A program made the translations under genes and the position numbers. The notes under the pieces are model-generated. The model saw nothing but the letters and a program-made list of their open reading frames with translations, was not told the origin of the DNA and did no database searches. From positions 62,001-126,000 of the forward strand of contig NZ_JANHDO010000006.1 in NCBI RefSeq assembly GCF_024494575.1: DNA of 64,000 nt, in the 5' to 3' direction. Positions within the stretch are counted from its first letter, which is position 1; each line of letters begins with the position of its first letter. Below are positions 43,020 to 61,477 of this stretch, piece by piece. This DNA comes from Halorubrum salinum. GTDB taxonomy: Archaea; Halobacteriota; Halobacteria; Halobacteriales; Haloferacaceae.

Positions 43020-43542
43020 AAGAGGGGATCTTAGGCCCAGGAAATGAGTTCTAACATTGACCGTGGCTGGAGATGCTAACGGATGTCCTAGTCCGTGCCG
43101 AACAGTACCGCGTGGACTTGTTGGCTACCCACGTACTCTGCCGACTCGTCGAACTACTGTCAGGCGTCTCGATCAGTTATCGATGCCCGGGCGTGTGGTA
43201 TGACTTACACGGCTCCACCTTGGCTGTGTTCTCGTGTAGGTCTATTTATTTATACTAGTACGGGTTTACACGGCTTTACGAGAATCACTACCTTTTGACT
43301 CTATTGGCAGTAGAGTTGTTACCTCATAACAACTTGTCTGAATAACACGATCACAATCAGAATGATTGGAATACTCTCACATAGCAGAGCAAGAAGAGGT
43401 TTCCATGAAGAATTCAGTCGTTGGAGGAAGTAGCAGAAGGAGGAAATATGTGTCGCATGAATAATAAATAAAACCATACAGTTAACACAGCTGTTATAAT
43501 CACACGGCCTTTTTATCTAAATAATATTAGTTTCCAATTATC
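43020..43542. other. Intergenic region with hairpin and promoter
   Basis: 523 bases between the ParA upstream repeats and the phosphoesterase. No supported gene. It includes a perfect 8-bp stem AGTTGTTA-(5)-TAACAACT at 43314-43334. Composition falls to AT-rich from about 43330, where the foreign phosphoesterase segment seems to begin. A TATA-like TTTTATC at 43511-43517 lies 26-32 bases before that gene's ATG. Confidence 0.45.
43314..43334. repeat. Perfect 8-bp inverted repeat
   Basis: AGTTGTTA and TAACAACT with loop CCTCA. It lies at the point where base composition changes from GC-rich to AT-rich. It could be a binding site or a recombination scar. Nothing further supports either. Confidence 0.4.
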
Positions 43543-44523
43543 ATGGTTGGTGAATTTGAAAAATATATTGAAAATGAAGTCGTCATCCTGACCCGGATTG
43601 ACGTAAATGAGCCGAAAGTAGCAAGTTTGAGAGTGCGGCGGTCAAATGGTACTACTCATCAATTTCGGTTATCAGATAACGAACCACTGAACATATGTTG
43701 GGCAGTCGGTGAAGAATATGAATTAAAAGATGTCGAGCTGCGGTCTAGATCGGATGGGGGGCATTTTTTAGCTGAGACTGACAATACATCGGTTAGAAGA
43801 GTCTCAAACGATGCCTTTGACTTCTTGGTAGTAGGTGATACCCATTTTGGATATAGAAATCGAACAACCAATGTTGATTCTCGGTATATAAATGGATATG
43901 AATTTAATGTTTTAGATCTATTAGTTGAACTATCTGATAAGTGGAATATTGATGGCATATTACACACTGGAGACTTGTTCGACCACAGAGTGGATAAATA
44001 CGGATACAATAATGTTAAAGAGAAATTTGATCAACTTGGTGATATGGATGTTGAGGTATTGTTTGTAACTGGAAATCATGATAATAAAGTAGAGAGTAGA
44101 ATTTCATCAATTTCTTCTCTTCCCAATATAAACAGACTTGATCAGACTGCTAACTGGGGGTCTATGGGTGGGTTCAATATTCTAGGACTGAATTCCAGTT
44201 CCTTCAATAATATATCCGATTTTGATTGGACAAAGTTCGAACAAAAGTATAAAGGACCGAACGTGCTCATCGCACACCCAAAGAGCATAGATATGGAGCT
44301 ATCGACATTTGATCAGCTAATAAAAGATACTAATGAGGAATGGTTTATTTTTCTTGGACATCATCACGAAGAAGGAGAAATTGATGAGAAAAATCTAAAA
44401 ATAATTTTTACTGGATTTCCAAGTAAACTAGATGATACAGGTTCTGTATGGAGAATGAGAGGAGGAAATGGGCACTGTAGAATCGTCCGTCACCGGCTCG
44501 GTAAGTGGAACAAATTATACTAA
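43543..44523 (+). CDS. Calcineurin-like metallophosphoesterase
   Basis: A 326-residue protein. A beta-rich N-terminal domain (about 1-95) is followed by a metallophosphatase domain with the classical blocks: DTHFG (about 99), GDLFDH (about 146), GNHDN (about 178), a single His in IAHPKS (about 243) and GHHHEE (about 268), all metal ligands. Such enzymes cleave phosphoester bonds in nucleotides, nucleic acids or phosphoproteins. The relation to Mre11/SbcD nucleases is only at fold level. The gene is far richer in A+T than its surroundings and in Asn/Lys/Ile codons, so it was probably acquired from another source. The start is supported by TATA at 43511. Confidence 0.83.
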   Translation: MVGEFEKYIENEVVILTRIDVNEPKVASLRVRRSNGTTHQFRLSDNEPLNICWAVGEEYELKDVELRSRSDGGHFLAETDNTSVRRVSNDAFDFLVVGDTHFGYRNRTTNVDSRYINGYEFNVLDLLVELSDKWNIDGILHTGDLFDHRVDKYGYNNVKEKFDQLGDMDVEVLFVTGNHDNKVESRISSISSLPNINRLDQTANWGSMGGFNILGLNSSSFNNISDFDWTKFEQKYKGPNVLIAHPKSIDMELSTFDQLIKDTNEEWFIFLGHHHEEGEIDEKNLKIIFTGFPSKLDDTGSVWRMRGGNGHCRIVRHRLGKWNKLY

Positions 44524-44654
44524 TTCGTATTATAAAATCGGGCTGATAACCAGATCGGGCTTACTTGGGACAGTCACTTGTAGTGATTTGTGCTATCTAC
44601 TTGTTATCCTATGCGTCCGATATCTATCAGTTTTCTACGGATATAGATCACTAC

Positions 44655-44888
44655 TCAGTCGTCCATTTCAAATAGTCCTCTTCTCAATTGCCGTTTCTCT
44701 CCCTCTGTATGCTGGTCGTAGTGTTCTTCGATAACATCGGTAGATACGTCGATCCGGTCGGACACCAGTTCCTTCGAGTGACCCTTGTTGAGCCACGCGG
44801 TAATAGCGCCGCGACGGAACGAGTGAGGCTTCACGGAGTCGGGACAGTCGGAAGCGTTCAATTTCTTCGTAGCCTCGCACGTCTCCAT
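44655..44888 (-). pseudogene. C-terminal fragment of a tyrosine recombinase
   Basis: 77 residues resembling the end of haloarchaeal plasmid/virus integrases: CPDSVKPHSFRRGAIT (the His-x-x-Arg block), WLNKGHSKELVSDRIDVSTD, and EEHYDQH with the nucleophile Tyr. The open frame continues upstream without ATG to about 44975 (with FRSGIRVFQSSEQAI and CLVEERE) before a stop, but the catalytic first Arg region and core-binding domain are absent. It is a remnant, probably marking the edge of an older insertion. Its upstream part overlaps the promoter zone of the next operon. Confidence 0.7.
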
Positions 44889-44990
44889 CTCACGCTCTTC
44901 AACAAGACAGATAGCTTGTTCACTTGACTGGAATACCCTTATTCCGCTTCGGAAGAGTAGATCGCAACAGAGATAGTTTTATGAGTTCAG

Positions 44991-47180
44991 ATGATTCCGG
45001 ATATACAAGTCAGAAGCGAGAGAAAACTAACAGCAGGCTCCGTAGCAGAAGGGGCATCGATGAGTAGGAGGAGTCTGTCTGGGACGATTCATGAAATTCC
45101 GTTTCAAGGCGGGTCGCTTGTGCCGTATCTCGTTGACCTGTATGAGCGATTGCAGGAGGACTATGATACGAAGGATATTCTCGTCCTCAAACGGCTTCCG
45201 ACTGGTATCGCAGATCTCACCCAGTCACTCGGTGATGAGTTGGATCTGATCGGTGTCCCAAACGTCCAGTCGGTCGCATTTCATGCTCGAAACTTGCTCG
45301 CCCGCGAGACATCGCTGGACATTATTTCATATGAAGAGCGTATCGAGTTTCTCGCGCTGGTCATTGACCAGCACGACTGGGATCATGAGTATTTCGAGGG
45401 ACCATCCGAGTTGGATTCTTTCGGTCGAGATGTGGGGCAAATCCTAATGGATGCCACCTGGCAAGGTGGTTTCGACATTGACGGAACGGGGGAATACGAT
45501 GATTTCCTGACCGAGTTAGCGTCTATCAACGAACGCTTCCATGATCGGCTCGACGAGCGCGGGCAAACCGAGCGGGCGAGAGTGCTCCAGAACGCGTTGG
45601 AGACGATTGAGGATCCAGATGTCTTGGCAGAGGCGCAACGCGAGTATGACGCCATCATTGTAGCTGAATTCGAGGAATTCAATTCGATTGAACGCACCTA
45701 CTTGAGCTACCTAGCTGAATCTGCAGAGCTCGTGTGTCTCGCAGAATCGGATTCGAGTATCGAGCGCGTGTGGAGCGAACCCGGTGAAAGCACAGCTGAG
45801 AGTAGCGGTCTCGAGAGTCCTACAGAACCCCTTACAACAGAGAGGGATCTAAACCAGGCACATTCAAAAATCGCTGAGCACCTTGCCACTGGAAAAGAGA
45901 TAGCTACCGACGATGAGTCTCTCGCCGACGATACGTATTTGATTCAGGAGCTAACGTTCGAGGAACAGCTCCAGACGGTCGCAAATGAAATCGAGTATCT
46001 CCGGCATAAGCATGATCTCCGGTACGACGAAATCGGCGTCTTGCTAAAGGATGCAAATGGACCGATACCGGAAGCGCGCCATGCTCTACAACATTCTGGG
46101 ATCCCTGTTGCATCCGCGACAGTGCTTGGCCTTGATCAGGACCCCTCCGTTCGAGAGCTACACGGGCTTGCGACATATATTCATGAGCAGTCGGACACGG
46201 CACAGACGCTACTGACGACTCGACTCGACATCGAACCCGATACACTGGATGCTATTGTCGAAGACGTCCGCTCAAACCAGAGCTTAGTCGGGCAACTCGA
46301 AGCGTGGATCCGGCTTACCCAACTCAAAGACCGAATCGCGAAGACCGAAGAAGAGGCGAAGGCAAAAAATCAGTTTTCGCATGTGGAGATGTTACTCGAG
46401 GTGGCCGAGTTCGTCGATGACGCTGATTATTTGGATGCGACTTGGCCCCGGTTCAACTCGATTCTTGAACGGACGGTGACGGATTACCAGACCTCGAGTC
46501 ACTCGGATGATCTTGATGTCGAAGAGGGAGGCGTGTTGGTGGACACAGTCAACGTATTGAAAAACGATCAGCGGAAGGCCGTCTTCCTCCTCAACGTCGT
46601 TGAAGGAGAATACCCAGAAGGGCTCGCACTGACCCCACTGTTCCCGACCGCCTGGCTGCGAAAGATGACTGGCTTCCCGAATGTGACGGATGTCTCTCCG
46701 GAGACGGTTACAGACACGTTCCGACCAGCAGAGATGGAAGCAGTGTCGCCACTCAACGAATACTACCGGCAATTGGACAGACGGAAACTTGCAATCGGGG
46801 CCCGATCTGCACAGGACCACCTCTATTTCTGCACCTATGAAGCGGACAGCGATACCCTTGACCGTACATACCAGCCGTCTCGGTATCTTCGGCAGATCAC
46901 TGACACCCTACAGATCCCGCAGATTGGCGAGGGTGAATACGAACGTGACGTCTACACGACTGGAAACGTGTCGCGAATTATCCTCGAACAGCCATGGGAG
47001 CAACTCGAAGCTGTCCGCGCTGCTGCATCAATTGGTGATCAAGATGTTGCGCTTGAAGATGCAGAGCAGCTCTTTGGCGCAATACAGAGCCTTATCGAAT
47101 CAGCTGAGATCGACCCGCGGTTTTCTGATGCGGTTTATCGCCAGATAGAGATGGCTCGTGGGGAGGTTGGTGACCAATGA
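44991..47180 (+). CDS. AddB-like inactive-helicase subunit
   Basis: A 729-residue protein whose layout resembles AddB/RecC-type UvrD-fold subunits without a functional P-loop. Strand IHEIPFQGGSLVPYLVDLY occupies the place of Walker A but lacks GKT. YDAIIVAEFEEFNSIERTYL matches the degenerate Walker B region. VLVDTVNVLKNDQRKAVFLL and NVVEGEYPEG match the motif V-like region, and LAIGARSAQDHLYF the motif VI-like one. The nuclease domain normally fused at the C-terminus is absent and is encoded by the next gene, which it overlaps by 4 bases. An internal ATG at 45060, better placed before the first strand, may be the true start. Confidence 0.62.
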   Translation: MIPDIQVRSERKLTAGSVAEGASMSRRSLSGTIHEIPFQGGSLVPYLVDLYERLQEDYDTKDILVLKRLPTGIADLTQSLGDELDLIGVPNVQSVAFHARNLLARETSLDIISYEERIEFLALVIDQHDWDHEYFEGPSELDSFGRDVGQILMDATWQGGFDIDGTGEYDDFLTELASINERFHDRLDERGQTERARVLQNALETIEDPDVLAEAQREYDAIIVAEFEEFNSIERTYLSYLAESAELVCLAESDSSIERVWSEPGESTAESSGLESPTEPLTTERDLNQAHSKIAEHLATGKEIATDDESLADDTYLIQELTFEEQLQTVANEIEYLRHKHDLRYDEIGVLLKDANGPIPEARHALQHSGIPVASATVLGLDQDPSVRELHGLATYIHEQSDTAQTLLTTRLDIEPDTLDAIVEDVRSNQSLVGQLEAWIRLTQLKDRIAKTEEEAKAKNQFSHVEMLLEVAEFVDDADYLDATWPRFNSILERTVTDYQTSSHSDDLDVEEGGVLVDTVNVLKNDQRKAVFLLNVVEGEYPEGLALTPLFPTAWLRKMTGFPNVTDVSPETVTDTFRPAEMEAVSPLNEYYRQLDRRKLAIGARSAQDHLYFCTYEADSDTLDRTYQPSRYLRQITDTLQIPQIGEGEYERDVYTTGNVSRIILEQPWEQLEAVRAAASIGDQDVALEDAEQLFGAIQSLIESAEIDPRFSDAVYRQIEMARGEVGDQ

Positions 47181-48076
47181 GTGCTGAAATGCTGGATTTC
47201 GATCAGATTGAGACATACCTTGCGTGTCCACAGAAGTGGGAGTATACACATGCGCTCGAAATCCGACCCGAAGAGAATACACAAAGTTTCAATCGGCGTG
47301 GAAAGCTTCTGCGAATAGCGTTACTGACCACATTCAATTCGGTTGAGGGAAGCAGTGAGGCGGCAGCACAGATGGCGATAAACTTTGTCGACCGACAGTG
47401 GGATCGGTTTACCGACGACGGGCTCTACCTGTCTGACCGGCAGGAAGAATTCGATAAGTCAGTCACAAAGCGAGCTCTGCAGACATACCTTGAGAACTAT
47501 TGGGACGATCACCTGTCATCGGCCGTCGAACATGGCACAGCAACTGGGATCCAGGTGGCCGGGAGAACAGTAAAAACGGGGGTTGACTTGCTTAGTAGGC
47601 AGAATAACGGTCACTTCGTTGTCTATGACTATGTTCCAACGCTTCGTGGCATTACGTTCTCTCACCCACAAGAGAACAAAGCAGACCAATACCTTACGCA
47701 AGAGGAGTATAGCGGTGGATATATCTCATCGATACTTCGGGCTGAGTTGGCGATTAGGGGGGTAAGTGAGGACCAAGACGTCGATACTAATGATGTGAGC
47801 TATGTCGTTGTTGGGCTTCATGAGTCAGTGACGACGACTGACGGCAGTGGTATCGATGGCGTCGCTGTGGAGCCAGAACTGCGAGATCTTACAGAGTGGC
47901 ATTCTGAATACAGTGAGTCGAATCACGAATTACTGGAAGCAACTGTGAGTAACATTACCCAAGCGGATACGACGATCCCGGAGTCATGGAGGTCTGGCCT
48001 ACTCCAATCAACCTGTCGGTACTGTGAATACAAAGACATGTGTAAACCACGCTTCAATTGGGGGGTCGAGTTCTAA
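47177..48076 (+). CDS. RecB/Cas4-like nuclease-fold protein with Fe-S cysteines
   Basis: A 299-residue protein resembling the C-terminal PD-(D/E)XK domain of AddB. It begins FDQIETYLACPQKWEY (first Cys) and ends CRYCEYKDMCKPRF, giving the 1+3 Cys pattern of iron-sulfur RecB-family nucleases. The core has VKTGVDLL and then VVYDYVP, where the usual catalytic Asp-Tyr-Lys is Asp-Tyr-Val. Loss of the Lys suggests weak or no cleavage, so the domain may act structurally. ATGA overlap upstream and TAATG overlap downstream couple it to the AddB- and AddA-like genes. Confidence 0.72.
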   Translation: MSAEMLDFDQIETYLACPQKWEYTHALEIRPEENTQSFNRRGKLLRIALLTTFNSVEGSSEAAAQMAINFVDRQWDRFTDDGLYLSDRQEEFDKSVTKRALQTYLENYWDDHLSSAVEHGTATGIQVAGRTVKTGVDLLSRQNNGHFVVYDYVPTLRGITFSHPQENKADQYLTQEEYSGGYISSILRAELAIRGVSEDQDVDTNDVSYVVVGLHESVTTTDGSGIDGVAVEPELRDLTEWHSEYSESNHELLEATVSNITQADTTIPESWRSGLLQSTCRYCEYKDMCKPRFNWGVEF

Positions 48077-51000
48077 TGTCGGAGCCAGAGTCGGATACAG
48101 ACGATATCGATCCAAAGGGGAATCAGCCAGCGGTTATCGAGTCGGACGAATCCCAAATCCGCGTAAATGCCGGGGCTGGGACCGGTAAAACCTCCACCAT
48201 GGTCTGGAAGATCGAACGCCAGATCAAAGAGCAAGGGGCGAACCCAGAACGGATCCTCGCACTGACGTTTGCGAACAAGGCGGCAACGAACGTCGAAACA
48301 CGAGTGGCTGAAGAGCTGGACTCAACGCTTGGCTACAATATCTCTTCATACACCTATCACTCGTTTTGTCATCAGCTTCTCAACGAGTACGCATACTACA
48401 CAGACCACCCACCGGATTTCGAGCTGATTACTGAGAGCACAAGTGCGACGCTCATACAGGAGATAGTACAAAAGATCGACTTCGACCTTATCGAACCGAT
48501 GACGCCAGGAAGTGACGGCACTCGAGATAACATCCTCGAAGATACACTCGATTTTATCGGCGAGATCAAACGCTCGGGCCATTCTCCTGATGATGTCGAA
48601 TCGGTGCTTCCAGCCCAGTCTGACGTGATGCGAGCACACCGGGCTGTCCAAGAGATCCAACACACTAGTGAGACACTCTGGGATCTGGATACACTCTTTG
48701 CCGATGGTGGTAGTGCAGGCCCCCGGATGAAACAATGGTTGATCGATCTTCGTAAAGAGCTACGGGCGATTATAGATGAATTCGATGGAGAATCCGAATT
48801 TTTGACTGAGATTGCAGACTATCTCTGGGAGTTCGAGGAGACAGTCGAGTATGTTCAGGAGCATCTCCGCCGAGACGGTCTGTCTGGGTCAAACGCAACG
48901 CTCGCTGCGTCACTTTTTACTGGTCATCCGAATTCGAATCGGTTCCAGGTAATCGATCAGAACCCGTTCATTCGACTCCAGGAATACGTCGATCTGTACC
49001 GGAAGGCCCACGACTTCACTGAAGCCTACCGCATCTATGAACAGTCCCTCGAAGAGCGGAACGCACTCGATTATGATGGGCTGATCCAGAGCGCTGCAGA
49101 GCTCCTCAACGACGATACCGTCGGCGATGAGATCCGAGCCGAATGGGACTACGTCTACTGTGACGAGTTTCAGGACACCCACCATGCAGAGCTCGACGTT
49201 GTTGACGCCCTTGGGCAAGATTCGGATGTGCTCGTGATCGGAGACACTGATCAGGCGATCTATGAGTGGCGAGGGACGAGCCCGGGGAATCTGGAAGATC
49301 TAACCGATATCTTCCCAGACATCACGTCGATAGATCTGAACCTTAATTTCCGCTCGTATCAGGGTATTCTGGACTTCACAGCGAATCTCGGTCACACTGA
49401 TGAACTGACGGCCCATCGTGGGCGAGGTGAGAATGAAGTTGTGAAGGTCGATGGCTACCCTGATCGGGAGGCTCAAGCTGAACAAGTCGCCTCGACCGTC
49501 TCCCATCTATTACAAGGCCGGTTCGATGAGATCGACCAGTACGAGAAAGATGAAATCGCAGTCATTGTCCGGAAGAACAGCCATGCTCGGACTGTCGCCG
49601 AACAGCTCGACGCTGAGAGTATCCCATTCTCGGTCTCCACAAATTCAGATGGTGAGCAGTCCCCTGGTGTGGAGACTGTCCTCTCCTACTTCCGACTCTT
49701 AGTTGATCACCACGACGACACGAATCTCTATCGAGTGCTCCTACATCTCTATGGCCTGCCAGAGTCCGATCTCCGGCTGCTGAGTCAGGAGGACGATGGG
49801 CTCTATGACTCACTGGTTGATGCTGATCCGAGCGATTTTGCTGCATCAGAGCGGGTAGAGCGGGCAATTTCAGACATTACCTATCTGCAGAAAGCTCGGA
49901 AAACCAGTTCGCTGAGTGGGTTTTATGAGAAGTTCCTTGACCGAACCAAGATCCAGTGGTATCTCACAGAAGATGAGCGGCAAGATCTAGCCCAACTTGA
50001 GAACAAAATCGAAGGTTACGACGACAAGGGGATTCAGTCGATGCTGACGAGTGACTTCGTTGACCACCTCGACCTACAGGAGACGATCTCTCGTGAGACG
50101 ATTGAGGGTCGTATCGAATCAGCCGAAAAAGTCGATGACAAAGTAAATCTGATGACGGTCCACGGGGCCAAGGGGCTCGATTTCGAGGTTGTGTTGATTC
50201 CTTACCTCTCGGATGATGAGTGGCCGAGCGTTCCAGGGAATCACGCTGAGATAAACTTCTGTTACGATGTCCTTCAAAAGAAGATGGACGGCAATAATGA
50301 AGACTGGCTGACTACAGATCTCGCGGACCTCCATGAAGAATGGCGGACGCTCCACGTTGCGATCACCCGAGCGAAAGAACACCTGTTCTTCTACGGAAAC
50401 AGTGGTGAACCCGATGACAATCAAGTGGCGGCTGGTGAGATCGATCAGTACCTCGGAAACGGGATTGAATGGAGCGTTAGCGGCGCAAAAATGAACCTCT
50501 GGAGTGCGCTGACGAGCAGTTTCGAGCAACTCAAAGATGAGCACCCACAGTCCGCGATCGACCTAACAGACGTCGTCAACGACCGCACTATTGAGACGAA
50601 AGAGAATATCACGTACTGGGGGAACGTGGTCGATCCCGGGGAAGCAGAATCCCAACTGCTGGATTTTGCCGGGCAGCTCCGTGCTGGCGAACTTGATCCA
50701 GTGGATCCGACGGACTTCGACCTTCGAGCGAACCCAGGCAGTGTCGACATAGAGCAGAAAATCGCGCGTGAGCACAGCCACTCCTCGCTCGAGACGTTCA
50801 AATCCTGTCCTCGCCGCCATTATCTTGACCATGTTGTGTATGCGTTCGATGATTCAGGGCTAGTAGATACTTCAGGTGACGCGGAGTCATCGGATCCGCA
50901 GATCGATTATGCAGCGGTTGGGACACTGTTCCACGACGTCGCTGAAGAGGCATATTGGCACAACTATACCGCGAAAGATGAGTGGATCAGCGCCGTTGAC

Positions 51001-51537
51001 AGACTCGGAACCCGCCGGGGGCTCTCGGATCGCGAACGGGTCCGTGCCAAAGACGGGGTCAACCGATTCTTCACTACTCCTGTGCCCGGGTGGACACAAC
51101 ATGCAGCAGAGTGGCCGTTTGTTCTTGAAGGGTATCTCGAGGATATCGGCGGTGTTGTGAAGGGGTATATTGACGGGATCTATCGGAATCCGGCTGGTGA
51201 GTTGGTGGTCCTAGATTACAAGAACACCAAAGAAAGAAAAGACGTTACAGAAAGCTACCAGTTGTTGCTCTACTTAGAGGCACTCAACGAGCGGCTTTCC
51301 GATGAGGAAGCCACACAGGCCGGCTATGTGTACGTCGGGGAGGCTGGTCCGGAAGTTGACCTATACGATTATGAGGAGCTGCTTGAGTTCCGTGATGACC
51401 TCCACGCTGACCTTCGTGCGGCAGATGTCAGCTCCTATGGAGACCCGGACAGTGGCCTCATTTGTGCGGAGTGTCTGCATCACTCGCTTGGGTGTGCCGA
51501 CCCAGGATGGGACCGACGGCCCGAAGCGAATCAGTAG
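48076..51537 (+). CDS. AddA-like UvrD helicase-nuclease
   Basis: A 1153-residue SF1 helicase fused to a RecB-type nuclease. Helicase motifs: Walker A NAGAGTGKT (about 31-39), LALTFANKAA (Ia), DEFQD (363-367), GDTDQAIYEWRG (III), NLNFRS (IV), TVHGAKGLDFEVV (V) and VAITRAKEHL (VI). The nuclease part (about 900-1153) has LETFKSCPRRHYLDH, GYIDGIYR and VVLDYKNTKE (catalytic Asp and Lys present) and a terminal ICAECLHHSLGC Cys group for an Fe-S cluster. It probably unwinds and degrades DNA ends, as AddAB/RecBCD do. It is the last gene of the operon, 64 bases from the convergent DrmB gene. Confidence 0.86.
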   Translation: MSEPESDTDDIDPKGNQPAVIESDESQIRVNAGAGTGKTSTMVWKIERQIKEQGANPERILALTFANKAATNVETRVAEELDSTLGYNISSYTYHSFCHQLLNEYAYYTDHPPDFELITESTSATLIQEIVQKIDFDLIEPMTPGSDGTRDNILEDTLDFIGEIKRSGHSPDDVESVLPAQSDVMRAHRAVQEIQHTSETLWDLDTLFADGGSAGPRMKQWLIDLRKELRAIIDEFDGESEFLTEIADYLWEFEETVEYVQEHLRRDGLSGSNATLAASLFTGHPNSNRFQVIDQNPFIRLQEYVDLYRKAHDFTEAYRIYEQSLEERNALDYDGLIQSAAELLNDDTVGDEIRAEWDYVYCDEFQDTHHAELDVVDALGQDSDVLVIGDTDQAIYEWRGTSPGNLEDLTDIFPDITSIDLNLNFRSYQGILDFTANLGHTDELTAHRGRGENEVVKVDGYPDREAQAEQVASTVSHLLQGRFDEIDQYEKDEIAVIVRKNSHARTVAEQLDAESIPFSVSTNSDGEQSPGVETVLSYFRLLVDHHDDTNLYRVLLHLYGLPESDLRLLSQEDDGLYDSLVDADPSDFAASERVERAISDITYLQKARKTSSLSGFYEKFLDRTKIQWYLTEDERQDLAQLENKIEGYDDKGIQSMLTSDFVDHLDLQETISRETIEGRIESAEKVDDKVNLMTVHGAKGLDFEVVLIPYLSDDEWPSVPGNHAEINFCYDVLQKKMDGNNEDWLTTDLADLHEEWRTLHVAITRAKEHLFFYGNSGEPDDNQVAAGEIDQYLGNGIEWSVSGAKMNLWSALTSSFEQLKDEHPQSAIDLTDVVNDRTIETKENITYWGNVVDPGEAESQLLDFAGQLRAGELDPVDPTDFDLRANPGSVDIEQKIAREHSHSSLETFKSCPRRHYLDHVVYAFDDSGLVDTSGDAESSDPQIDYAAVGTLFHDVAEEAYWHNYTAKDEWISAVDRLGTRRGLSDRERVRAKDGVNRFFTTPVPGWTQHAAEWPFVLEGYLEDIGGVVKGYIDGIYRNPAGELVVLDYKNTKERKDVTESYQLLLYLEALNERLSDEEATQAGYVYVGEAGPEVDLYDYEELLEFRDDLHADLRAADVSSYGDPDSGLICAECLHHSLGCADPGWDRRPEANQ

Positions 51538-51601
51538 AAGCCCACAACACACAATCTCATAAATCGCTATTTGACTACCGAAATTGTATCGCTACCATCT
51601 G

Positions 51602-53443
51602 TTAGAGGAATCCGTTGATTTCTTCGTTATCAAACGGCCCGCCGAACAAGACGGAGCGGCTTAGATTGTTGTTTGAATTGGCACAGGTGATGTTCGAGAG
51701 GAAGAGGCAGTCCTCGCATGCACAGTTATGATCAGTTCGGCAGATGGTGTCATAGGTACAGAACTCCGCCTCTTCGATCTGTGCCATGACATCCAGAAAT
51801 CGCTCTTCAAACAGAGTAAAAATAGATCCAAGACTGTAGTCCGTATCTGCTCGTTTATAGATCACTGTCGAGAGTGTCCTTGGGAGCAGATGCTCGACCA
51901 AACTCTCACGTCCGTATCCCGAGAGTGCCCCAATCGCGTCAATAACTGCATGCGAGTAGGTATGCAACAGCGTGTACACCGCACGTGATACGGGATCAGT
52001 TTCTGGATCGATGGTGCCGAACCGACCAGGATCCGTTACTTGCGAGAGGAACCATCTATCGAGATCATCAATCGCCAACTCGCCGGTGAAGTTCTCGCTG
52101 ACCCACTCACGCACTGCTGTCTTATCGAGTGACAACACGACGGCTTCGGCATCATTTGTTCGAGCGAAGATCTGCCCCTCAGCCCACTCACCACTACGGA
52201 ACAGATTCAGGGCCGGCGGAACCGCATCATCGTCCGGCGTTTCATCGCCGCCGAATCCGCCGGTGGGCTCCGGCGATAACCGCGTATATCCATACGTCAC
52301 GGTGGTGATTGGGAAATTCTTCACCAATCTGACTTGCGAGAGATTGCGCCGATCACGTTCGGTGATGTACTCATCAATCTGATCACTTTCGAGGTGCGTG
52401 TCGATAGCCCCTGACTGGAGCTCCTCAAACGTGTAGGAGTAGATATAGTCTGCTTCGTCGTACGAATCATTCGTGATCGAGAGGTACTCAAAGAGCTCCT
52501 CGCTCAGTTTAACCTGTTCCTGTTCGTCGAAGACGTCCCGTAAGAAGGCAGCTGTCTCGTCGCGATGTTCGGTGATATCGACTTCAAGACGCTCCTTTGC
52601 CATTTTACGAGCTTCTTCGTTTGATTCTGCTTCTCCTTGTTGGAGCAGATCCATCGCAAGATCCATCACTGTGTCGGGGTCGGGTTCACCCAGTTCAGAA
52701 TCATCGAGCAGGTAATCGCTCACGATCTCAACCTGAAACCGGTCGTTAGTATGGAGTGTGTCGAGATCCTGCCGAACGTTCACCAGCGTTTGGGTCTGAG
52801 GGTAGAAGGTCGTCGACGCTGAATGGGGGAGTGTCCGGAGATCGTTCCGATCACAGGTAGCGTTGAGGCATTTTCCGCCGTGGAAATCCTTCGTGTAGTC
52901 ACACCCGGGATTCGTGCAGCGCCAGTACGAATCCGAGAGCTTGACGCCGCTCTCTCGGAATTCCATGCCTGTACCACAGTGATCCGGGACAAGGATGTCC
53001 TGAATCTGGCCACAGGAACAGACGGCGGCGAACCGCATTTGATGATGATCGTGGAGGGCGTCGCCACAGCGCTCGCAGTTGATCGTATTTCCAGTGCCAG
53101 TAAAATCTTTAACATCATTATAGTGGAACTGATTTGCAGTTCCGCAGTTTCCACAGGCGAATACTCTCGGGAACACCTCGAAGTTCGCACTCCCTGGTTG
53201 AATGATGTCAATCGCCGTTTCGTTGAAATCCATCTGTTCCCAGTTGTCCCATTTGCTGGCGTGGCGCTTGACCCGGCGGAAGATATACTGGCTGGGAAGA
53301 TTGGGCGTGATTGGCTGCCCGCGGTCGTCATAGTCCTGATTGACGTATCCGATGAGCCCACTGAGATTCGTTTCAGAGTGATTGAACGTCGCCCCTGGGA
53401 GAAAGTCATACAGGAACTTCGACTTCTTGCGCTCCATCGTCAT
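51602..53443 (-). CDS. drmB: DrmB-like DUF1998 protein (DISARM)
   Basis: A 613-residue protein of the DrmB/DUF1998 type. The N-terminal half has zinc-binding Cys clusters (CGNCGTANQFHYND, CERCGD, CSCGQIQD, CTNPGC, CLNATC). The C-terminal DUF1998 region shows YTLLHTYSHAVIDAIGALSG and a final CACEDCLFLSN...NNNLSR block. DrmB works with the DrmA helicase in DISARM anti-phage defence, where the pair loads on incoming DNA. It overlaps the DrmA stop by one base (TAATG). An ATG two codons in is an alternative start. Confidence 0.8.
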   Translation of the reverse strand: MTMERKKSKFLYDFLPGATFNHSETNLSGLIGYVNQDYDDRGQPITPNLPSQYIFRRVKRHASKWDNWEQMDFNETAIDIIQPGSANFEVFPRVFACGNCGTANQFHYNDVKDFTGTGNTINCERCGDALHDHHQMRFAAVCSCGQIQDILVPDHCGTGMEFRESGVKLSDSYWRCTNPGCDYTKDFHGGKCLNATCDRNDLRTLPHSASTTFYPQTQTLVNVRQDLDTLHTNDRFQVEIVSDYLLDDSELGEPDPDTVMDLAMDLLQQGEAESNEEARKMAKERLEVDITEHRDETAAFLRDVFDEQEQVKLSEELFEYLSITNDSYDEADYIYSYTFEELQSGAIDTHLESDQIDEYITERDRRNLSQVRLVKNFPITTVTYGYTRLSPEPTGGFGGDETPDDDAVPPALNLFRSGEWAEGQIFARTNDAEAVVLSLDKTAVREWVSENFTGELAIDDLDRWFLSQVTDPGRFGTIDPETDPVSRAVYTLLHTYSHAVIDAIGALSGYGRESLVEHLLPRTLSTVIYKRADTDYSLGSIFTLFEERFLDVMAQIEEAEFCTYDTICRTDHNCACEDCLFLSNITCANSNNNLSRSVLFGGPFDNEEINGFL

Positions 53444-56400
53444 TATTGCTCACCCTCCGTGAGACGCTGGATGAACTCTTGATTGTTGTACTGCGGTGTG
53501 ATTTCGCCTTGTTCACCGATATCTCGGAGGTTCTGCATTGGCTCGTTCCCTTGTGGGAATTCTGGGTAGTGCATTTCGCCGAGTTTGTTTTTCCAATATC
53601 GCCAGACGTCCCGAACACGAGCTTCAACTTGGTCCTCGAAATACCGATTCACGTCCTCACCGCGGTCTAACCCATACGCTGCTTTGAGATCCGCGATGAA
53701 TGTTTCCTCGGTGATCTCGGGATACTGGTCTTCTGTCATAAGCTTGTAGAGGTGTGATGCTTTCTGGACGTTGGCGCGCTCCGTGTCGCCATCCTCGCTG
53801 ATCTCATACTTGCGGTACATTTCTGGCCGGTATCTCTGTAAGAGAATGCTGCTGAAAATTCCAGTAAATGTCCGGTCAATTCCGAACTTCGCCCATCGAT
53901 CGATCGGCACTGGCTCGACAGTTCGATCCAGATACTGGTGCATCTTTTCGAAGTACCGGAACCGGTGTTTGTCTCGCTCCTTGATCGGGTCGAAGACGTC
54001 CAAAACGAATCCAGGTGTGTCAGCTTGCCGGCCGACACGGCTACTGGATTGGATGTACTGGAACGTCTTTCGTGGATACCCGAAGAATAGCATGAGGTTG
54101 AATCGGTCGACGTCAATACCGTGGCCGATAAAACTCGTCGAGGGCACGGTATCGATACGCTCCTCGAAAGGAATGTCACCGGGGTCCTCGAGCTGTTCGA
54201 GGAATTCTGGATCTTCCGTGTCAGCAGTCAACTGTCGCTCGATAAGGGGATCTTCATATCCGTCTCGCTTGAGCTTTGGATTGACGTATTTCGCGATATT
54301 CTCCCGGTAGCGGTCTTTTCGGGTTTTGTTATTGAAGTAGACGAGCGATGTTTCATAGAGATCCAGAAGGTCTGCTTTCTCAGTCGGAGTGAGGGTGGTG
54401 ACGCCGATTGCCTCTGCTAACTCAGCTGGCGGCATAGCGCGAAGATCGCGAATCACCTCATGCATGTCTGCAACGATATCGAGGACGGCGTAGAGATGCG
54501 ACCGGTTCGACGGCATGAGCCCGAGATACTCCCGCTCGACCGTCTCTGTCAGGTGCCCATAGAAGGTTTCTCCCTGCACTGGCCCATCGTTCGGAAACCG
54601 AACTGCATCCCGTTGGAATAGATTGCGAATTTGGCGTTCATACTCGGAGATGGTCGCTGTCGATGTCACGATTTTCGGTGTCTTTCCATGGATCTGCTCA
54701 CAGAGAGACAGATACGTCGTTTCATAGTGGGATGCGAAGGTCCCCAGCTCCTCGTTTAGCAAGTGTACCTCGTCGATCAGATGTAGTGTCGGGACTGGAT
54801 CGTAGAACTCTGTAGATGTATCTTCAATCCGATCTTCACAGTCGAATAGATCCTTCTCCGAACAGGTTCCTGAATAGCCGTAACCGTGTACGGGACAATA
54901 TGTGGTGGTGTTGCCGAGGAGATTTGCAAATCGGGGCTGCATTCCCATAACGGAGATCTTGTCTAGGGACCCAAGCAGTATCGAGGGAATGTATCGGTAG
55001 ATGTCTCGGTCGACGACGTAGAGTGGGATTTGCCCGATACAGTCGTCCCCGGAACAGTGGTGGAAGACACTGTTTTTCTCTACATCATATTCGACAGTGA
55101 TCTCGCTATCACAGAGCGGGCACTCATCGAGTACCTTGCATTCTCGTTCGAGTTTCTCCTGACTCTGCTGGAACGCTTCTCTGAGGGTATCCCTGGCTGT
55201 CCCGATGGCGTTCGGTGTATCCTGTCCACCGACATAGAATCCGAGCGAGAATTCAGCACCGGTCCCATCAAACCAGGCCGGATCTCGGCGAATTTGTTCA
55301 GCGTAGAGCAGACTTTCGATGAAGCGATCTTTCTGTTGACGGCTCAGCAGCCGGAGCGGGAATCGAATCCAGGCGGTGACACCCTCGTTTTTCCCACGAA
55401 GCCGGTCATAGAACAGATTGAATAAGATGAGCCCGAGGTAGGCTTCGGTCTTTCCCCCACCTGTTGGGAACCACAAGACATCTGCCATCTCGTCATATTC
55501 TGTCTCTGCCCAGTCGTGCTCACGTTGAACGACTCCTGAGAGATTGCAGGTGACGAACACGAGCTGGAAGAGCCGCCAACCAGGGAACTCATGCTGATTT
55601 GAATTCACCTGATTCATCGCCTGGAAGGCCTTGAGAGACCGTTCATCCCGACTGAGAATCTCGATCCCATGCTTAAACCGATCAATTTCAGCATGGAATG
55701 TCTCGGCCGCAGCATCAAGCTCCTCAGCTTCTTCAGGTGTCAGATCCAGATCATCAATAATCTCAGACCGTCTCGTTGTCGTCCAGTCCTCGTAGTACGC
55801 CTCCATCCCCTCCGCAATTGCTTCGAGCGTCGGGATCGCTGCACTCCCCGTTAGATCGTCGAAGTCCGTCTCGTAGCTGTCGTTGAATTCAAATTCGTAG
55901 ACTGGCTCGGTCGGCACAGCCGTTGTCGACACTGTTGTCGGTGGTGATCCGACACCCGTTTCGATCGAACAGTTCCGTCCTTTGCCCCATACCTGCTGAT
56001 CGTATCTGTAGTCTTCCGGAACGAGATCGAACGTATAGGGTTCGAGTTCACCTTCGACCTCGATCTGTGGATTAAAGACGAACGGATCGTCGGTCGTTTC
56101 GTTGCCTGCAATTGGCCGATTAATGATTTCGACAGTAAGCTGGCCATCGGATTCTCTCGAGACGAGACCAATGTTCCATTGGTAGTGATCGGTATCGACG
56201 GTCGGAACATCCTCGGTAAGCTCTGAGAACTCCTCGGGCCCGATATCGAGAAGTTCAGGTGGGGAGAGACCGAGTTGCTCACCAACTTCCGGGGTTGGAG
56301 TTACGAGGTAGGATTGTGTCTGATCAGCGAACGCCTCGCGAACAGCATCACGCAGGCGTACTTCAACATCCTCAATCTCGCTGGGGAGGGAAAGCAACTC

Positions 56401-56847
56401 ACCCGTATACTCGAATGATACAGAGAACTTCCGGTAGAATTCCTCGGCGATTGAATAGAGCGAGTCAGCCGAGACAGCATCACGGTCTACTGACTCGATT
56501 TCGACATCTTCGCGCTCAGCGACTTCGAGTTTTGCTGCTCTGAGTCCCTGCTCACGGAGCGACTTGAACTCCTCGTAGGTAGGGAAGCTTGGATAGTAAA
56601 GGTCGAACGTGATCCTGAGTGTCCCCGTCGTTCCGGGTGTTGGTTTGCAATCTAATCCGTGAGAGACCGGCTTGGTCTTTGCCTCGAAATCCTCCTCAGA
56701 GTCTCGTCCATATTCCGGGGCAATATTCGAGACGTAGAACTTGTCCTCAGGGCGTTCGCCGACACAGTACGCAGTATTTCGTCCGCTCGCACGGTCGAGC
56801 GTCTGCGTCAGCAGGAATTGTCCGAGTTGTTGTGCTTTACTCGACAT
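53443..56847 (-). CDS. drmA: DrmA-like SF2 helicase (DISARM)
   Basis: A 1134-residue helicase. Residues 1-440 are an N-terminal region specific to DrmA-like proteins. Walker A is PTGGGKT (461-467) in VLWFPTGGGKTEAYLG, the DEVH box is at 692-695 (LIDEVHLL), motif III is TSTATI, and motif VI is QSSSRVGRQ. A Cys-rich insertion (about 570-605 and 650-670) probably binds zinc. FIGHGIDVDRFNLMLFFGYP precedes motif VI. DrmA is the motor of the DISARM system. It overlaps the gene upstream by 11 bases and DrmB downstream by one base, forming one translationally coupled operon. Confidence 0.83.
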   Translation of the reverse strand: MSSKAQQLGQFLLTQTLDRASGRNTAYCVGERPEDKFYVSNIAPEYGRDSEEDFEAKTKPVSHGLDCKPTPGTTGTLRITFDLYYPSFPTYEEFKSLREQGLRAAKLEVAEREDVEIESVDRDAVSADSLYSIAEEFYRKFSVSFEYTGELLSLPSEIEDVEVRLRDAVREAFADQTQSYLVTPTPEVGEQLGLSPPELLDIGPEEFSELTEDVPTVDTDHYQWNIGLVSRESDGQLTVEIINRPIAGNETTDDPFVFNPQIEVEGELEPYTFDLVPEDYRYDQQVWGKGRNCSIETGVGSPPTTVSTTAVPTEPVYEFEFNDSYETDFDDLTGSAAIPTLEAIAEGMEAYYEDWTTTRRSEIIDDLDLTPEEAEELDAAAETFHAEIDRFKHGIEILSRDERSLKAFQAMNQVNSNQHEFPGWRLFQLVFVTCNLSGVVQREHDWAETEYDEMADVLWFPTGGGKTEAYLGLILFNLFYDRLRGKNEGVTAWIRFPLRLLSRQQKDRFIESLLYAEQIRRDPAWFDGTGAEFSLGFYVGGQDTPNAIGTARDTLREAFQQSQEKLERECKVLDECPLCDSEITVEYDVEKNSVFHHCSGDDCIGQIPLYVVDRDIYRYIPSILLGSLDKISVMGMQPRFANLLGNTTTYCPVHGYGYSGTCSEKDLFDCEDRIEDTSTEFYDPVPTLHLIDEVHLLNEELGTFASHYETTYLSLCEQIHGKTPKIVTSTATISEYERQIRNLFQRDAVRFPNDGPVQGETFYGHLTETVEREYLGLMPSNRSHLYAVLDIVADMHEVIRDLRAMPPAELAEAIGVTTLTPTEKADLLDLYETSLVYFNNKTRKDRYRENIAKYVNPKLKRDGYEDPLIERQLTADTEDPEFLEQLEDPGDIPFEERIDTVPSTSFIGHGIDVDRFNLMLFFGYPRKTFQYIQSSSRVGRQADTPGFVLDVFDPIKERDKHRFRYFEKMHQYLDRTVEPVPIDRWAKFGIDRTFTGIFSSILLQRYRPEMYRKYEISEDGDTERANVQKASHLYKLMTEDQYPEITEETFIADLKAAYGLDRGEDVNRYFEDQVEARVRDVWRYWKNKLGEMHYPEFPQGNEPMQNLRDIGEQGEITPQYNNQEFIQRLTEGEQ

Positions 56848-59206
56848 CGATTACGTCCTCTACGATTTTTTCCATGGTGTCTGCTTCGATATCTGCATCA
56901 CTGTCGGCAACCTCATCTGGTAACGAACTATCCGTTGCAATTCCAGCTTCGACAGACCGCTTGGCTTCCTTCCCGATTTGTCGATGGAGGGTGCGGATTT
57001 CTCTAAGCGCTGAAATCGTCGGGTCAGCAAGCGAGGTTGCGCTCGGATCCAAGATTTCCAGTACAAGTCGAACATTTTCAGGGTCTCGGGGACCAAGTGT
57101 CCGGCCGGATCGCCAGCTTGCAATCGTGTCTGGAGTACTGATATCCGACCCTTTTGACTGCATCTCGCGGAGGAGCCCTTCTACGGTGTACTCGTCGTCG
57201 AGTCCCTCCTTGAGAACAGTCCGCCATCGGTCAATGGTTGATTCACACCCACGGACGCGCTCTCGATCATGGGCAGATTCAATAAAGACGTCATAGAGGT
57301 CGCCACTGGAGTCGTCCATCAGCAACACCTCGTCACCTGGCTCTAGCTCGGCGACTGGAACCCGAACGATCCCCCCTTCAGAAGTAACCGTGACGCGGCT
57401 AAGCGAAGATTGGGTCCTCGATGTTCCATCGGTAAACACTATCTTCAGTGTATTGTCTGTGTGGACTTGCCCAGTTTCGCCTGATGCCTCCCCAGTTGTC
57501 CCCGACTGAGTGCTGGCACTCTCCCCACTGAACTCCGCCTCAAGTACCTCATCCAGAAGTTCGTTTGCGTTCTTGTAATCGGGGGCTTCGTAGTTTTTTT
57601 CGCCGATACTGGCAACCGCTGATGCGTCCCTTGGGGAAGCCTCCTCAACGACTTCCTGTAGTTCCTCGTCGGCGTCTTGTGGACTCCTCTGAGCTGCCTG
57701 TGGGCTACCGGGCGTGGGGCTTCCTGCCCCTGCCCGCGCAGTGTTCTGCTCTGGCGGTTCTTTGGGCTCGTTATAATCTGTTACCTCAATCGTTGTATCG
57801 GTCTCTGCGAGTTCGCGTTCAAGCCGACGTTCGACATGATCAGCCCACATCTCGAACTGGAGAAACTCCATCGACCGTGAAGCTGGGAACGAATAGGTGT
57901 GAGATGACTGCCCCAATGGGCGTGTTATCACCGTCGGTTTGTCAGGGTCTGGGACGAGATCTGCGATCGGCATAATCTCAGTAGTATCGGGCATCGTTCC
58001 CCCCTCTGCCGCAAGGGCGTTGATGATCGCTTTCGTCTCATATTCGTTCCGGACAACGAATCGCGCTAAAGTGCCGGCCTCCTCTGCGTCGCTAATTCGT
58101 TCGAACAATGCCTCTTGCAGCGGGTGCTTCGTATTGAGTAGCTGTTGAAGATAGCTAGCTGCTTGACAGTAGTTGATAAGCAAATCAGCGGTCATCCCAT
58201 CCAGGTTTTGAGCCTTCCCCCGGAGGTTTGCAATGAGATCACCCACCGATTGGTGGTGGTAGTTGTCTTTGACCGCGTCTTCCCAATGTTGGGGGCGTAC
58301 CGGTAGCTCAGTCAGGAGGTTGAACAGCCAGCCAACCTCAACTGCGAGTCCGGGCACGTGACGGAGATCTTGTTTCATGTTCGCTAAGTCAGTCACGACA
58401 GATCGCATTTTCGGGTAGTGGACTCGCTGGAGAGCGACACGACGCTCACCCGAGGAGAGGATTTGTGCGTATTTCGAGGCGACGGATGCGTCCGTATTCT
58501 CGTTTACACGTGCGGTCGAGAGCAAAGTGTTGTCTAACTCGATGTGCCACGTGTTCGAGAGTATCGACTCAAACGCTGGTTGGGTCTCATTCACATAATA
58601 GACCACGGGAATAGAGAGTCCCTTCACATACGACTTGAGTTCCTCAAGCCGTCGACGAGGGTCACGCCACTCTTTTTTCCGAAGGTCGACGACTAGGACA
58701 CCAAGATCGCTCGGGCAGTTATCCAATTCAATCCCGTGTTTCGCGGTAAACAGGCTTGCCGAGCCAGAAACGCTGCTCACTTTATCGATCGACGTGCGGT
58801 CGAGGAGTGGTGGAGTCTTGCCGATTCCATTGCGGCGGACTTCGTCAAATAACGTCACATACCCTCGCGACAAGGATGGTAGCAGACAGAGAGACTTCCC
58901 TTGCCCGACGATCCCGTTCCTTGGAAAGCTTGGATTTTGTACTCGAAGATATCCTAGGCAGACACCGAGTAGTACCTCATTACCCGGTAGTGGATTGACA
59001 ATCGTGACGTTCTTGCCGCGGCTGATCGAAGTAAGGGCTTCCTCAATAACGGCTAGCTCGACATCACCCATGTTGAGGGGACCATCTTTTGTTCGCAGAC
59101 CGTCCTGGAACCAGCGAGCGAGTTCCGGCCGGTCCTCGCATCGCGTGGCAGTCTCTGCCAATGTCTGCATCAACGTGCTACGTACAGTCGTACCATTGAT
59201 AAGCAT
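56837..59206 (-). CDS. Large protein of the DISARM-like operon, possibly DrmE
   Basis: A 789-residue protein, first in the operon. The N-terminal 420 residues look like a degenerate RecA/helicase fold: VTIVNPLPGNEVLLGVCLGY where a P-loop would be, DLGVLVVDLRKKEW near a Walker B position, and RFVVRNEYETKAIINAL. No catalytic P-loop is present. A disordered Pro/Gly/Ala/Glu linker (about 500-600) leads to a small beta domain (VRVPVAELEPGDEVLLMDD) and a helical C-terminus with TIASWRSGRTLGPRDPENVR. Size, position before drmA and the C-terminal domain suggest DrmE, a class 2 DISARM protein of unknown activity. The assignment rests on pattern recall. Confidence 0.5.
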   Translation of the reverse strand: MLINGTTVRSTLMQTLAETATRCEDRPELARWFQDGLRTKDGPLNMGDVELAVIEEALTSISRGKNVTIVNPLPGNEVLLGVCLGYLRVQNPSFPRNGIVGQGKSLCLLPSLSRGYVTLFDEVRRNGIGKTPPLLDRTSIDKVSSVSGSASLFTAKHGIELDNCPSDLGVLVVDLRKKEWRDPRRRLEELKSYVKGLSIPVVYYVNETQPAFESILSNTWHIELDNTLLSTARVNENTDASVASKYAQILSSGERRVALQRVHYPKMRSVVTDLANMKQDLRHVPGLAVEVGWLFNLLTELPVRPQHWEDAVKDNYHHQSVGDLIANLRGKAQNLDGMTADLLINYCQAASYLQQLLNTKHPLQEALFERISDAEEAGTLARFVVRNEYETKAIINALAAEGGTMPDTTEIMPIADLVPDPDKPTVITRPLGQSSHTYSFPASRSMEFLQFEMWADHVERRLERELAETDTTIEVTDYNEPKEPPEQNTARAGAGSPTPGSPQAAQRSPQDADEELQEVVEEASPRDASAVASIGEKNYEAPDYKNANELLDEVLEAEFSGESASTQSGTTGEASGETGQVHTDNTLKIVFTDGTSRTQSSLSRVTVTSEGGIVRVPVAELEPGDEVLLMDDSSGDLYDVFIESAHDRERVRGCESTIDRWRTVLKEGLDDEYTVEGLLREMQSKGSDISTPDTIASWRSGRTLGPRDPENVRLVLEILDPSATSLADPTISALREIRTLHRQIGKEAKRSVEAGIATDSSLPDEVADSDADIEADTMEKIVEDVIDVE

Positions 59207-59218
59207 TTATCATTTCAC

Positions 59219-59231
59219 GATATCTGATATC
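59219..59231. promoter_or_regulatory. GATATC pair in the divergent promoter region
   Basis: GATATC-t-GATATC, two palindromes separated by one base, lies 12 bases before the DrmE-like start and about 90 before the CARF-like gene. It is the only dyad in the 114-base divergent region and could be an operator controlling both operons. Confidence 0.35.
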
Positions 59232-59320
59232 TAATCAGGGCGCCGGCTCACCCTCTACAGTCGAGTTATTATTATGAACTTTACGCTATCTATTTACGCC
59301 GTGGATAAAATAGTTGGACA

Positions 59321-59797
59321 ATGACCAATATCTGGATTACGTCAATGAGCACCCACCCTGAGTCGGTACTCAACCCGTTAATCGGAGCCTGTGAAGACGG
59401 GTTCGTTCCAAATTCCGTTGAGTTGTTGTCCAACCCGAGTGTTTCAGAGTATGAATCCATGATTTCGTCGCTAATGGAAGATGTGATGACTGCCTATGGC
59501 AACCACAACGGCGACGTGGCTGTTCGCCAACTGAGCAGTGAATTAGAATTTGCCGAAATTGTGGCGCACTTCCTCGATCCAATCGAGGAGGCCGGCAGGA
59601 ACGACACCGTCGCCGTCGATATTACCCCTGGTCGGAAGTTTATGTCTGCGATCGCGTTCCAGACCGGAATGAGCCATGGCGCTGATCACGTCTACTATAA
59701 TCACCTCGATTCAGACGAGTACTTCGGAAAGATATACTCCGTGATTCCTCGGACTGCAACGACTCTCATCGACTTTGCGGAGCTCCTGGACTCATGA
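59321..59797 (+). CDS. Stand-alone CARF-like ligand-sensor protein
   Basis: A 158-residue Rossmann-like protein. Strand 1 and its loop read NIWITSMSTHPESVLNPL, and the second signature is VAVDITPGRKFMSAIAFQTG (about 97-116). Together these are the two ligand-binding loops of CARF domains, which bind cyclic oligoadenylates in type III CRISPR systems. The domain stands alone, with no effector fused. Its stop overlaps the next start by 4 bases (ATGA), so sensor and nuclease are coupled. No Cas10 or CRISPR array occurs in the window. Confidence 0.6.
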   Translation: MTNIWITSMSTHPESVLNPLIGACEDGFVPNSVELLSNPSVSEYESMISSLMEDVMTAYGNHNGDVAVRQLSSELEFAEIVAHFLDPIEEAGRNDTVAVDITPGRKFMSAIAFQTGMSHGADHVYYNHLDSDEYFGKIYSVIPRTATTLIDFAELLDS

Positions 59798-60882: not shown

Positions 60883-60896
60883 GATCCATATGGATC
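60883..60896. repeat. 14-bp perfect palindrome
   Basis: GATCCATATGGATC begins on the base after the stop codon of the PIN-like gene. It may form a 3' hairpin or be a protein-binding site. Confidence 0.5.
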
Positions 60897-61175
60897 AACG
60901 AGCTGTGGAATCGTCCCATATCTCACAAGGCGCAGAATTTTGTCGTTAGACGTGATTCACCCGGGTAGCAGCGTCTCTATAAGCGAAATCCTCAGAGGAT
61001 TATATGTTCGTCCTGTAATTCGGTCATGTTTAATTAACGGTGAAGTGTCTCCGATTCGTCGTTGCCATCACCAACTTTGAGGGGGGTAACAACCCTGCCC
61101 GCGAGAGGCTCAAGCCATGAGATTGATTCTATGACACGTTCTACTACAGGAATAGGTAAAACGAGATGGCTCTTC
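60897..61175. other. Intergenic region
   Basis: No gene is supported between the PIN-like gene and the end of the small winged-helix gene. An odd palindrome ATCCTCAGAGGAT lies near 60989-61001. Short frames have no protein-like composition. This gap separates the CARF/PIN unit from the restriction-modification unit. Confidence 0.4.
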
Positions 61176-61406: not shown

Positions 61407-61443
61407 TGGGTATTAATATTCTTCATTTACGATATTGATTTAC

Positions 61444-61452
61444 ACTATAAAG
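61444..61452 (+). promoter_or_regulatory. TATA box of the methyltransferase gene
   Basis: ACTATAAAG at 61444-61452 is 26-34 bases before GTG 61478, the usual spacing for leaderless archaeal transcripts. A 14-codon frame from ATG 61458 ends in TAATG over the second candidate start at 61502, but it begins upstream of the predicted transcript start and is therefore probably not translated. Confidence 0.5.
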
Positions 61453-61477
61453 TAAACATGAACAGAATCAACTATGC

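What the first reader, a model, noticed from the sequence alone, without database searches (positions are those of the whole stretch)
44991..51537. AddAB-like helicase-nuclease with AddB split into two genes
Seen: three overlapping genes encode a UvrD-fold protein lacking GKT, a separate RecB-like domain with four Fe-S Cys, and a complete AddA-like helicase-nuclease. Known: bacterial AddB carries the first two parts in one chain. Archaea normally resect ends with HerA-NurA and Mre11-Rad50. Inferred: an imported end-processing machine, here in a defence island and convergent with DrmAB, may degrade foreign DNA.
Basis: partly seen in the sequence, partly recalled or inferred. Interest (0 to 1): 0.62.

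Follow-up and report, generated by a model that had tools for sequence, protein, structure and literature searches.

The report
Three-gene haloarchaeal AddAB-like helicase-nuclease
Salt-loving archaea widely carry a three-gene relative of the bacterial AddAB machine that unwinds and chews broken DNA ends; one branch sits in Argonaute defence operons, and this copy travels in a transferable anti-virus cassette next to DISARM.

Summary
Window 44991-51537 encodes three overlapping genes: an AddB-N-like pseudo-helicase without a P-loop, a separate RecB-like domain with four Fe-S cysteines, and an AddA-like helicase-nuclease. The split is not local: gene 1 was found in 140 of 391 Halobacteria genomes, and in all 60 loci read the AddB halves are separate genes in the same order. 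Two points were missed. (1) The AddA nuclease also has four invariant cysteines, unlike canonical AddA. (2) The separate RecB-like subunit has lost its catalytic Lys and His here and in all 23 members of the window's clade, but is intact in the sister clade, so this copy should have one active nuclease. The intact clade often sits beside defence genes, including Argonaute-PLD operons. The inactive clade is mostly chromosomal. The window copy is an exception, inside a 20.8-kb cassette shared at 99.86% identity with Halorubrum salipaludis, convergent with a DISARM that lacks DrmC. Gene 1 matches AddB best; the deep placement of the motor (AddA/RecB versus AdnAB or UvrD) is unresolved. Degradation of invader DNA ends is likely but inferred. 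No complex structure could be modelled.

The parts
44991..47180 (+). AddB-N-like subunit: UvrD-fold pseudo-helicase without P-loop (729 aa)
   Evidence: PDB profile best hit AddB 2.9e-10; hhalign best partner AddB N-half, aligned 54-406 to 19-359; no GKT in 60/60
47177..48076 (+). AddB-C-like subunit: RecB/Cas4-type PD-(D/E)XK domain, four Fe-S Cys, catalytic His and Lys lost (R..D..D-x-V)
   Evidence: PDDEXK_1 5.7e-13; three of the four Cys invariant in 60 homologues, the fourth in 59; dead in 23/23 of clade A
48076..51537 (+). AddA-like motor: SF1 helicase plus RecB nuclease with all catalytic residues (H959 D1039 D1053 K1055 Q1068 Y1072) and four Cys (917, 1136, 1139, 1146; numbering from the TTG at 48058)
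   Evidence: Pfam; these residues invariant in 58/58
43543..44523 (+). Mre11-like calcineurin phosphoesterase upstream; part of the cassette, not conserved with the operon elsewhere
   Evidence: Metallophos 2.8e-12; found in other AddAB neighbourhoods only weakly
51602..53443 (-). DrmB, convergent, 64 bp from the AddA end
   Evidence: DrmB_fam 4.7e-26
53443..56847 (-). DrmA helicase
   Evidence: DISARM_DrmAS 2.2e-115
56837..59206 (-). DrmE
   Evidence: DrmE_N 1.5e-57, DrmE_C 1.4e-50
59321..60882 (+). CARF protein plus CARF-PIN-like protein, a pair that recurs near the AddAB-like operon in 6 other loci
61478..63612 (.). N6/N4 DNA methyltransferase (+) and MvaI/BcnI-type endonuclease (-), last genes of the cassette
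43286..64000 (.). Shared 20.8-kb cassette (continues 119 bases past the window)
   Evidence: 99.86% identical to a Halorubrum salipaludis contig, no homology outside

Best explanation
A three-subunit helicase-nuclease of haloarchaea that works like AddAB or RecBCD. The motor subunit (gene 3) translocates 3'-5' on one strand from a DNA end and cuts with its C-terminal Fe-S RecB nuclease. The P-loop-less subunit (gene 1) holds and scans the other strand, as AddB or RecC does. The separate Fe-S RecB-like subunit (gene 2) completes the AddB half. In the window's clade gene 2 is catalytically dead and should act as a scaffold or DNA gate, as the dead nuclease domain of RecC does, so only one nuclease works. 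In this mobile cassette it most likely degrades linear foreign DNA opened by its neighbours (DISARM, a type II restriction enzyme). Shown by sequence: architecture, motifs, conservation, clade split, cassette. Inferred: complex formation, polarity, strand scanning, the role of gene 2, anti-invader function.
For: Same order of three separate genes with short overlaps in 60 loci. Gene 1 best matches AddB by PDB profile and by profile-profile comparison (AddB 179 > UvrD-Cas4 130 > AdnA 108 > AddA 98), and the two halves align to AddB 19-359 and 729-1032, so the gene boundary falls at the domain boundary. Motor motifs and nuclease residues invariant in 58 homologues. Gene 2 Cys kept but catalysis lost in a single change on the tree. 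Defence context of the sister clade: 21 of 37 loci against 1 of 23, Fisher p 2.5e-5. Cassette transfer.
Against: No structure: the single-sequence model failed (pLDDT 38), and homologous rows from the genome search are outside the predictor's stated rule. Gene 2 is closer to the nuclease of UvrD-Cas4 fusions than to that of AddB. Gene 1 also scores against UvrD-Cas4 fusions and PcrA. Placement of the motor with AddA/RecB is neither shown nor rejected (AU p 0.27 and 0.71). Most clade A copies are chromosomal, which favours repair.
Confidence: 0.62

Rival explanations
1. Housekeeping DNA double-strand break resection: clade A is a resident repair enzyme that makes 3' tails for RadA, and the cassette copy is a hitchhiker or repair helper.
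For: 105 of 121 Natrialbaceae genomes carry a gene 1 homologue; many clade A loci lie on 3-5 Mb chromosomes with shared neighbours such as a CBS-domain gene; only 1 of 23 clade A loci has the recurring defence genes.
Against: The window copy sits on a mobile defence cassette of low G+C shared between two species; outside Natrialbaceae the distribution is patchy.
Confidence: 0.3
2. Alternative nuclease arm of DISARM: AddAB takes the place of the missing DrmC, following DrmAB onto invading DNA ends.
For: DrmC follows DrmB in the complete haloarchaeal DISARM loci scanned; the window and G214 (L065/L141/L142) lack it and both have AddAB convergent to drmB at 64 and 37 bp, from different AddAB clades; G014 has a PLD-SNF2 helicase there. 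DrmC is dispensable and other nucleases were proposed (PMC9142583).
Against: Only two cases; the DrmA of G214 and of G014 are the closest to the window's, so islands may share ancestry; L147 lacks DrmC and has no such partner; genes are convergent, not co-transcribed.
Confidence: 0.25
3. Independent invention of an AdnAB-like machine: duplication of a UvrD-Cas4 fusion, decay of one copy's motor and splitting of its gene, with no descent from AddAB.
For: Gene 2 best matches UvrD-Cas4 C-termini; the gene 3 nuclease has Fe-S Cys as UvrD-Cas4 does and canonical AddA does not; the motor forms its own clade.
Against: Gene 1 matches AddB best, from residue 54 on; joining the motor to UvrD-Cas4 alone is borderline (AU p 0.05); a tree with AddA/RecB is as good.
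Confidence: 0.3
4. Three unrelated nucleic-acid enzymes in one operon, no common complex.
For: No interaction data exist; the order of the genes is the only link shown.
Against: Invariant order and overlaps in 60 loci across Halobacteria.
Confidence: 0.05

Closest known systems
AddAB (bacteria; also canonical copies in methanogens and a few haloarchaea, L118-L126, L131)
   Same: One active SF1 motor with C-terminal RecB nuclease; partner made of an inactive helicase fold plus an Fe-S RecB nuclease; two-part length of about 1030 aa matches AddB
   Different: AddB equivalent is two genes; Fe-S Cys also in the motor's nuclease; gene 2 nuclease dead in the window's clade; motor does not clearly fall with AddA/RecB
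AdnAB (Actinobacteria)
   Same: Two UvrD-like halves each linked to a RecB nuclease; Fe-S motif on the partner's nuclease
   Different: AdnA keeps a P-loop and is one chain; in the AdnAB read here AdnB shows no such motif
RecBCD
   Same: Partner without ATPase and with a dead nuclease domain (RecC), as in the window's clade
   Different: No RecD; Fe-S kept in the dead domain; RecC gives no profile match to gene 1 or gene 2
UvrD-Cas4 fusions (PMC5704561)
   Same: UvrD motor with Cas4-like Fe-S nuclease, defence contexts
   Different: Single protein without a pseudo-helicase partner
APAP Argonaute-PLD system (PMC11442185)
   Same: Haloarchaeal ago-PLD operons of this kind are followed by the intact-nuclease clade; the paper notes 'a helicase-encoding gene' nearby
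   Different: The paper does not identify it as a three-gene AddAB-like unit

Membership tests
AddAB | Motor subunit with SF1 helicase motifs and C-terminal RecB nuclease residues | tested here: met
   Invariant in 58/58
AddAB | AddB N-half: AddB-type helicase fold | tested here: met
   Best profile match AddB; by sequence profile only
AddAB | AddB as one chain carrying both halves | tested here: not met
   Separate genes in 60/60 loci
AddAB | Active nuclease in the AddB half | tested here: not met
   Catalytic Lys lost in the window and 23/23 of its clade; intact in the sister clade
AddAB | Fe-S cysteines in the AddB nuclease only | tested here: not met
   Four Cys in both gene 2 and gene 3; canonical AddA read here has none at the C-terminus
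AddAB | Motor within the AddA/RecB clade | tested here: inconclusive
   AU p 0.27 and 0.71, own clade at 100
AddAB | Complex formation and Chi control | not testable with these tools
   Needs biochemistry
AdnAB | P-loop in both helicase subunits | tested here: not met
   Absent in gene 1, 60/60; present in AdnA
RecBCD | RecD-type second helicase | tested here: not met
   No such gene in the operon
UvrD-Cas4 fusion | Single-chain fusion without a helicase-like partner | tested here: not met
   Conserved three-gene operon
DISARM class 2 (neighbour of the finding) | drmMII-drmE-drmA-drmB-drmC operon | tested here: not met
   drmE-A-B present; drmC and a 5mC methylase absent next to them

The most novel reading that the evidence does not exclude
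A separate, haloarchaea-specific class of helicase-nuclease with three subunits and Fe-S domains in both nucleases: a housekeeping form with one active nuclease and a defence form with two, the defence form serving as the DNA-unwinding and shredding arm of Argonaute-PLD, CARF-PIN and DrmC-less DISARM systems.
Probability: 0.3. Interest if true: 0.8.

Novelty: new variant of a known kind. Interest (0 to 1): 0.6.

Why it matters
End resection in haloarchaea is described through Mre11-Rad50 (PMC7776575). A RecBCD-type machine in most Natrialbaceae and about a third of Halobacteria, annotated only as 'DNA helicase UvrD', 'PD-(D/E)XK nuclease' and 'ATP-dependent DNA helicase', would change that picture and is testable in culturable hosts. 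It also suggests an identity for the unexplained helicase beside Argonaute-PLD operons and offers a nuclease for DISARM without DrmC. The paired clades, dead against live second nuclease, are a natural experiment on why AddAB has two nucleases and RecBCD one.

Tried and rejected
Single-sequence AlphaFold of gene 1: pLDDT 38, useless, so no fold search. 'Split is a sequencing error or a local frameshift': rejected, fixed in 60 loci. 'AddAB is tied to DISARM': weak, 2 independent cases. 'Mre11-like gene is a fourth subunit': rejected, not conserved. 'Nucleases beside the operon share an N-terminal OB domain with the Mre11-like gene': not supported (score 10 against a control maximum of 30); Argonaute and the OB-exonuclease do look related there (score 36). 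Repeats at the cassette ends: none found. My first 'PcrA' set held an AdnB fragment (L129); corrected.

Full report
WHAT IS THERE. Three + strand ORFs at 44991-47180, 47177-48076 and 48076-51537 overlap by a few bases. Gene 3 is a full SF1 helicase with a C-terminal PD-(D/E)XK domain; gene 2 is a PD-(D/E)XK domain; gene 1 has only weak UvrD signals on its own. A profile of gene 1 homologues finds B. subtilis AddB as the best chain in the PDB, E 2.9e-10, ahead of PcrA and UvrD1.

HOW WIDESPREAD. Gene 1 was found in 140 of 391 Halobacteria genomes and 51 of 86 genera. I read 60 neighbourhoods. In all of them the order is gene 1, gene 2, gene 3, and the two AddB halves are separate genes, usually with 4 or 8 base overlaps. 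The split is therefore the state of the family. Canonical AddAB with one-chain AddB exists separately in methanogens and a few haloarchaea. RefSeq calls the three genes 'DNA helicase UvrD', 'PD-(D/E)XK nuclease family protein' and 'ATP-dependent DNA helicase'.

MOTIFS. Gene 1 has no P-loop in 60 of 60. Gene 3 keeps Walker A and B, all RecB nuclease residues and four Cys (917, 1136, 1139, 1146) in 58 of 58. Gene 2 keeps its four Cys (one homologue lacks one of them) while the catalytic His and Lys are present in one group and absent in another. On a tree of gene 3 there are two clades, support 98 and 99: 23 rows including the window all have a dead gene 2, 35 rows all have D, D and K (one of them lacks the His), and one change explains this. 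Loss of catalysis with retention of the Fe-S site recalls RecC, whose nuclease-like domain is inactive (PMC1185551, listed), although RecC has no such cluster (own knowledge).

PROFILE COMPARISON. By hhalign gene 1 matches AddB (score 179, 54-406 to 19-359) better than UvrD-Cas4 fusions (130), AdnA (108), AddA (98) or AdnB (63). Gene 2 matches UvrD-Cas4 C-termini (112), then the gene 3 nuclease (98), then AddB 729-1032 (84), then AdnA (58). Gene 3 matches AddA (731), UvrD-Cas4 (670), AdnB (547), PcrA (461), RecB (277). Scores depend on profile depth, which differs between sets. In trees gene 3 is its own clade at 100; deeper placement is open: AU p is 0.05 for UvrD-Cas4 alone, and 0.27 and 0.71 for AddA/RecB. 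So it is AddAB-like in build, but formal membership fails on three tested features (one-chain AddB, active second nuclease, Fe-S on one side only).

CONTEXT. The live-gene-2 clade has recurring defence genes in 21 of 37 loci, against 1 of 23 (the window) in the dead clade, Fisher p 2.5e-5; loci share ancestry, so p is indicative only. Eight live-clade loci carry an Argonaute gene upstream, with a PLD gene usually 5 bp before gene 1; these resemble the APAP operons of PMC11442185, which mentions only a neighbouring helicase gene. Others have CARF plus CARF-PIN, an AAA-DUF4143 protein, a PLD protein and an OB-exonuclease.

THE WINDOW COPY. From 43286 to 119 bases past the window end the sequence is 99.86% identical to a Halorubrum salipaludis contig and unrelated outside. 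The block holds an Mre11-like phosphoesterase, the three genes, drmB-A-E, CARF and CARF-PIN proteins, an N-methyltransferase and an MvaI/BcnI-type nuclease. G+C of the operon is 0.53 against 0.66 in a short chromosomal stretch. It is a recently moved defence cassette.

DISARM. Complete haloarchaeal loci read here carry drmMII-E-A-B-C, with DrmC confirmed by PADLOC in the representatives scanned. The window and G214 lack DrmC and a 5mC methylase and have AddAB convergent with drmB. They are independent on the AddAB side (different clades), although G214's DrmA is the closest to the window's outside H. salipaludis (59%). In G214 AddAB also follows BREX pglZ by 16 bp. DrmC is dispensable and DrmAB was proposed to use other nucleases (PMC9142583). 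This fits a replacement nuclease, but two cases prove little.

MECHANISM. Most likely: loading on a DNA end, 3'-5' unwinding by gene 3, cutting by its Fe-S nuclease, the second strand led through gene 1 and gene 2, with gene 2 cutting only in the live clade. In the cassette the substrate would be invader DNA ends. All of this beyond the sequence facts is inference from the AddAB and RecBCD families.

LITERATURE. I found no paper in the held library that describes this three-gene unit; subscription papers and most preprints are missing, so novelty is provisional.

Noticed in passing
window 39130-40697: CBASS-like oligonucleotide cyclase followed by a 2TM effector.
   Followed up: no
window 15251-28144: Dsr1-like protein and two mad8-like proteins in a long minus-strand gene run.
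   Followed up: no
window 34023-35096: Exonuclease VII large subunit (XseA) homologue, a bacterial-type nuclease in a haloarchaeon.
   Followed up: no
L149, L150: An NgAgo-type Argonaute gene lies next to a complete DISARM operon in two genomes.
   Followed up: no
L131: Canonical one-chain AddAB next to brxA on Natrinema pellirubrum plasmid pNATPE02.
   Followed up: no
L062, L064, L068, L069: AddAB-like operon with a convergent OB-fold plus DEDD-type exonuclease, with an AAA-DUF4143 gene and mostly a PLD gene nearby; the OB part resembles the Argonaute N-terminus.
   Followed up: partly
window 43240-43286 and G198:C3:81450-81498: The sequences just outside the left cassette end look alike in the two genomes (GGGTTT..CGG..C/TACGA), perhaps a plasmid site used for recombination.
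   Followed up: no
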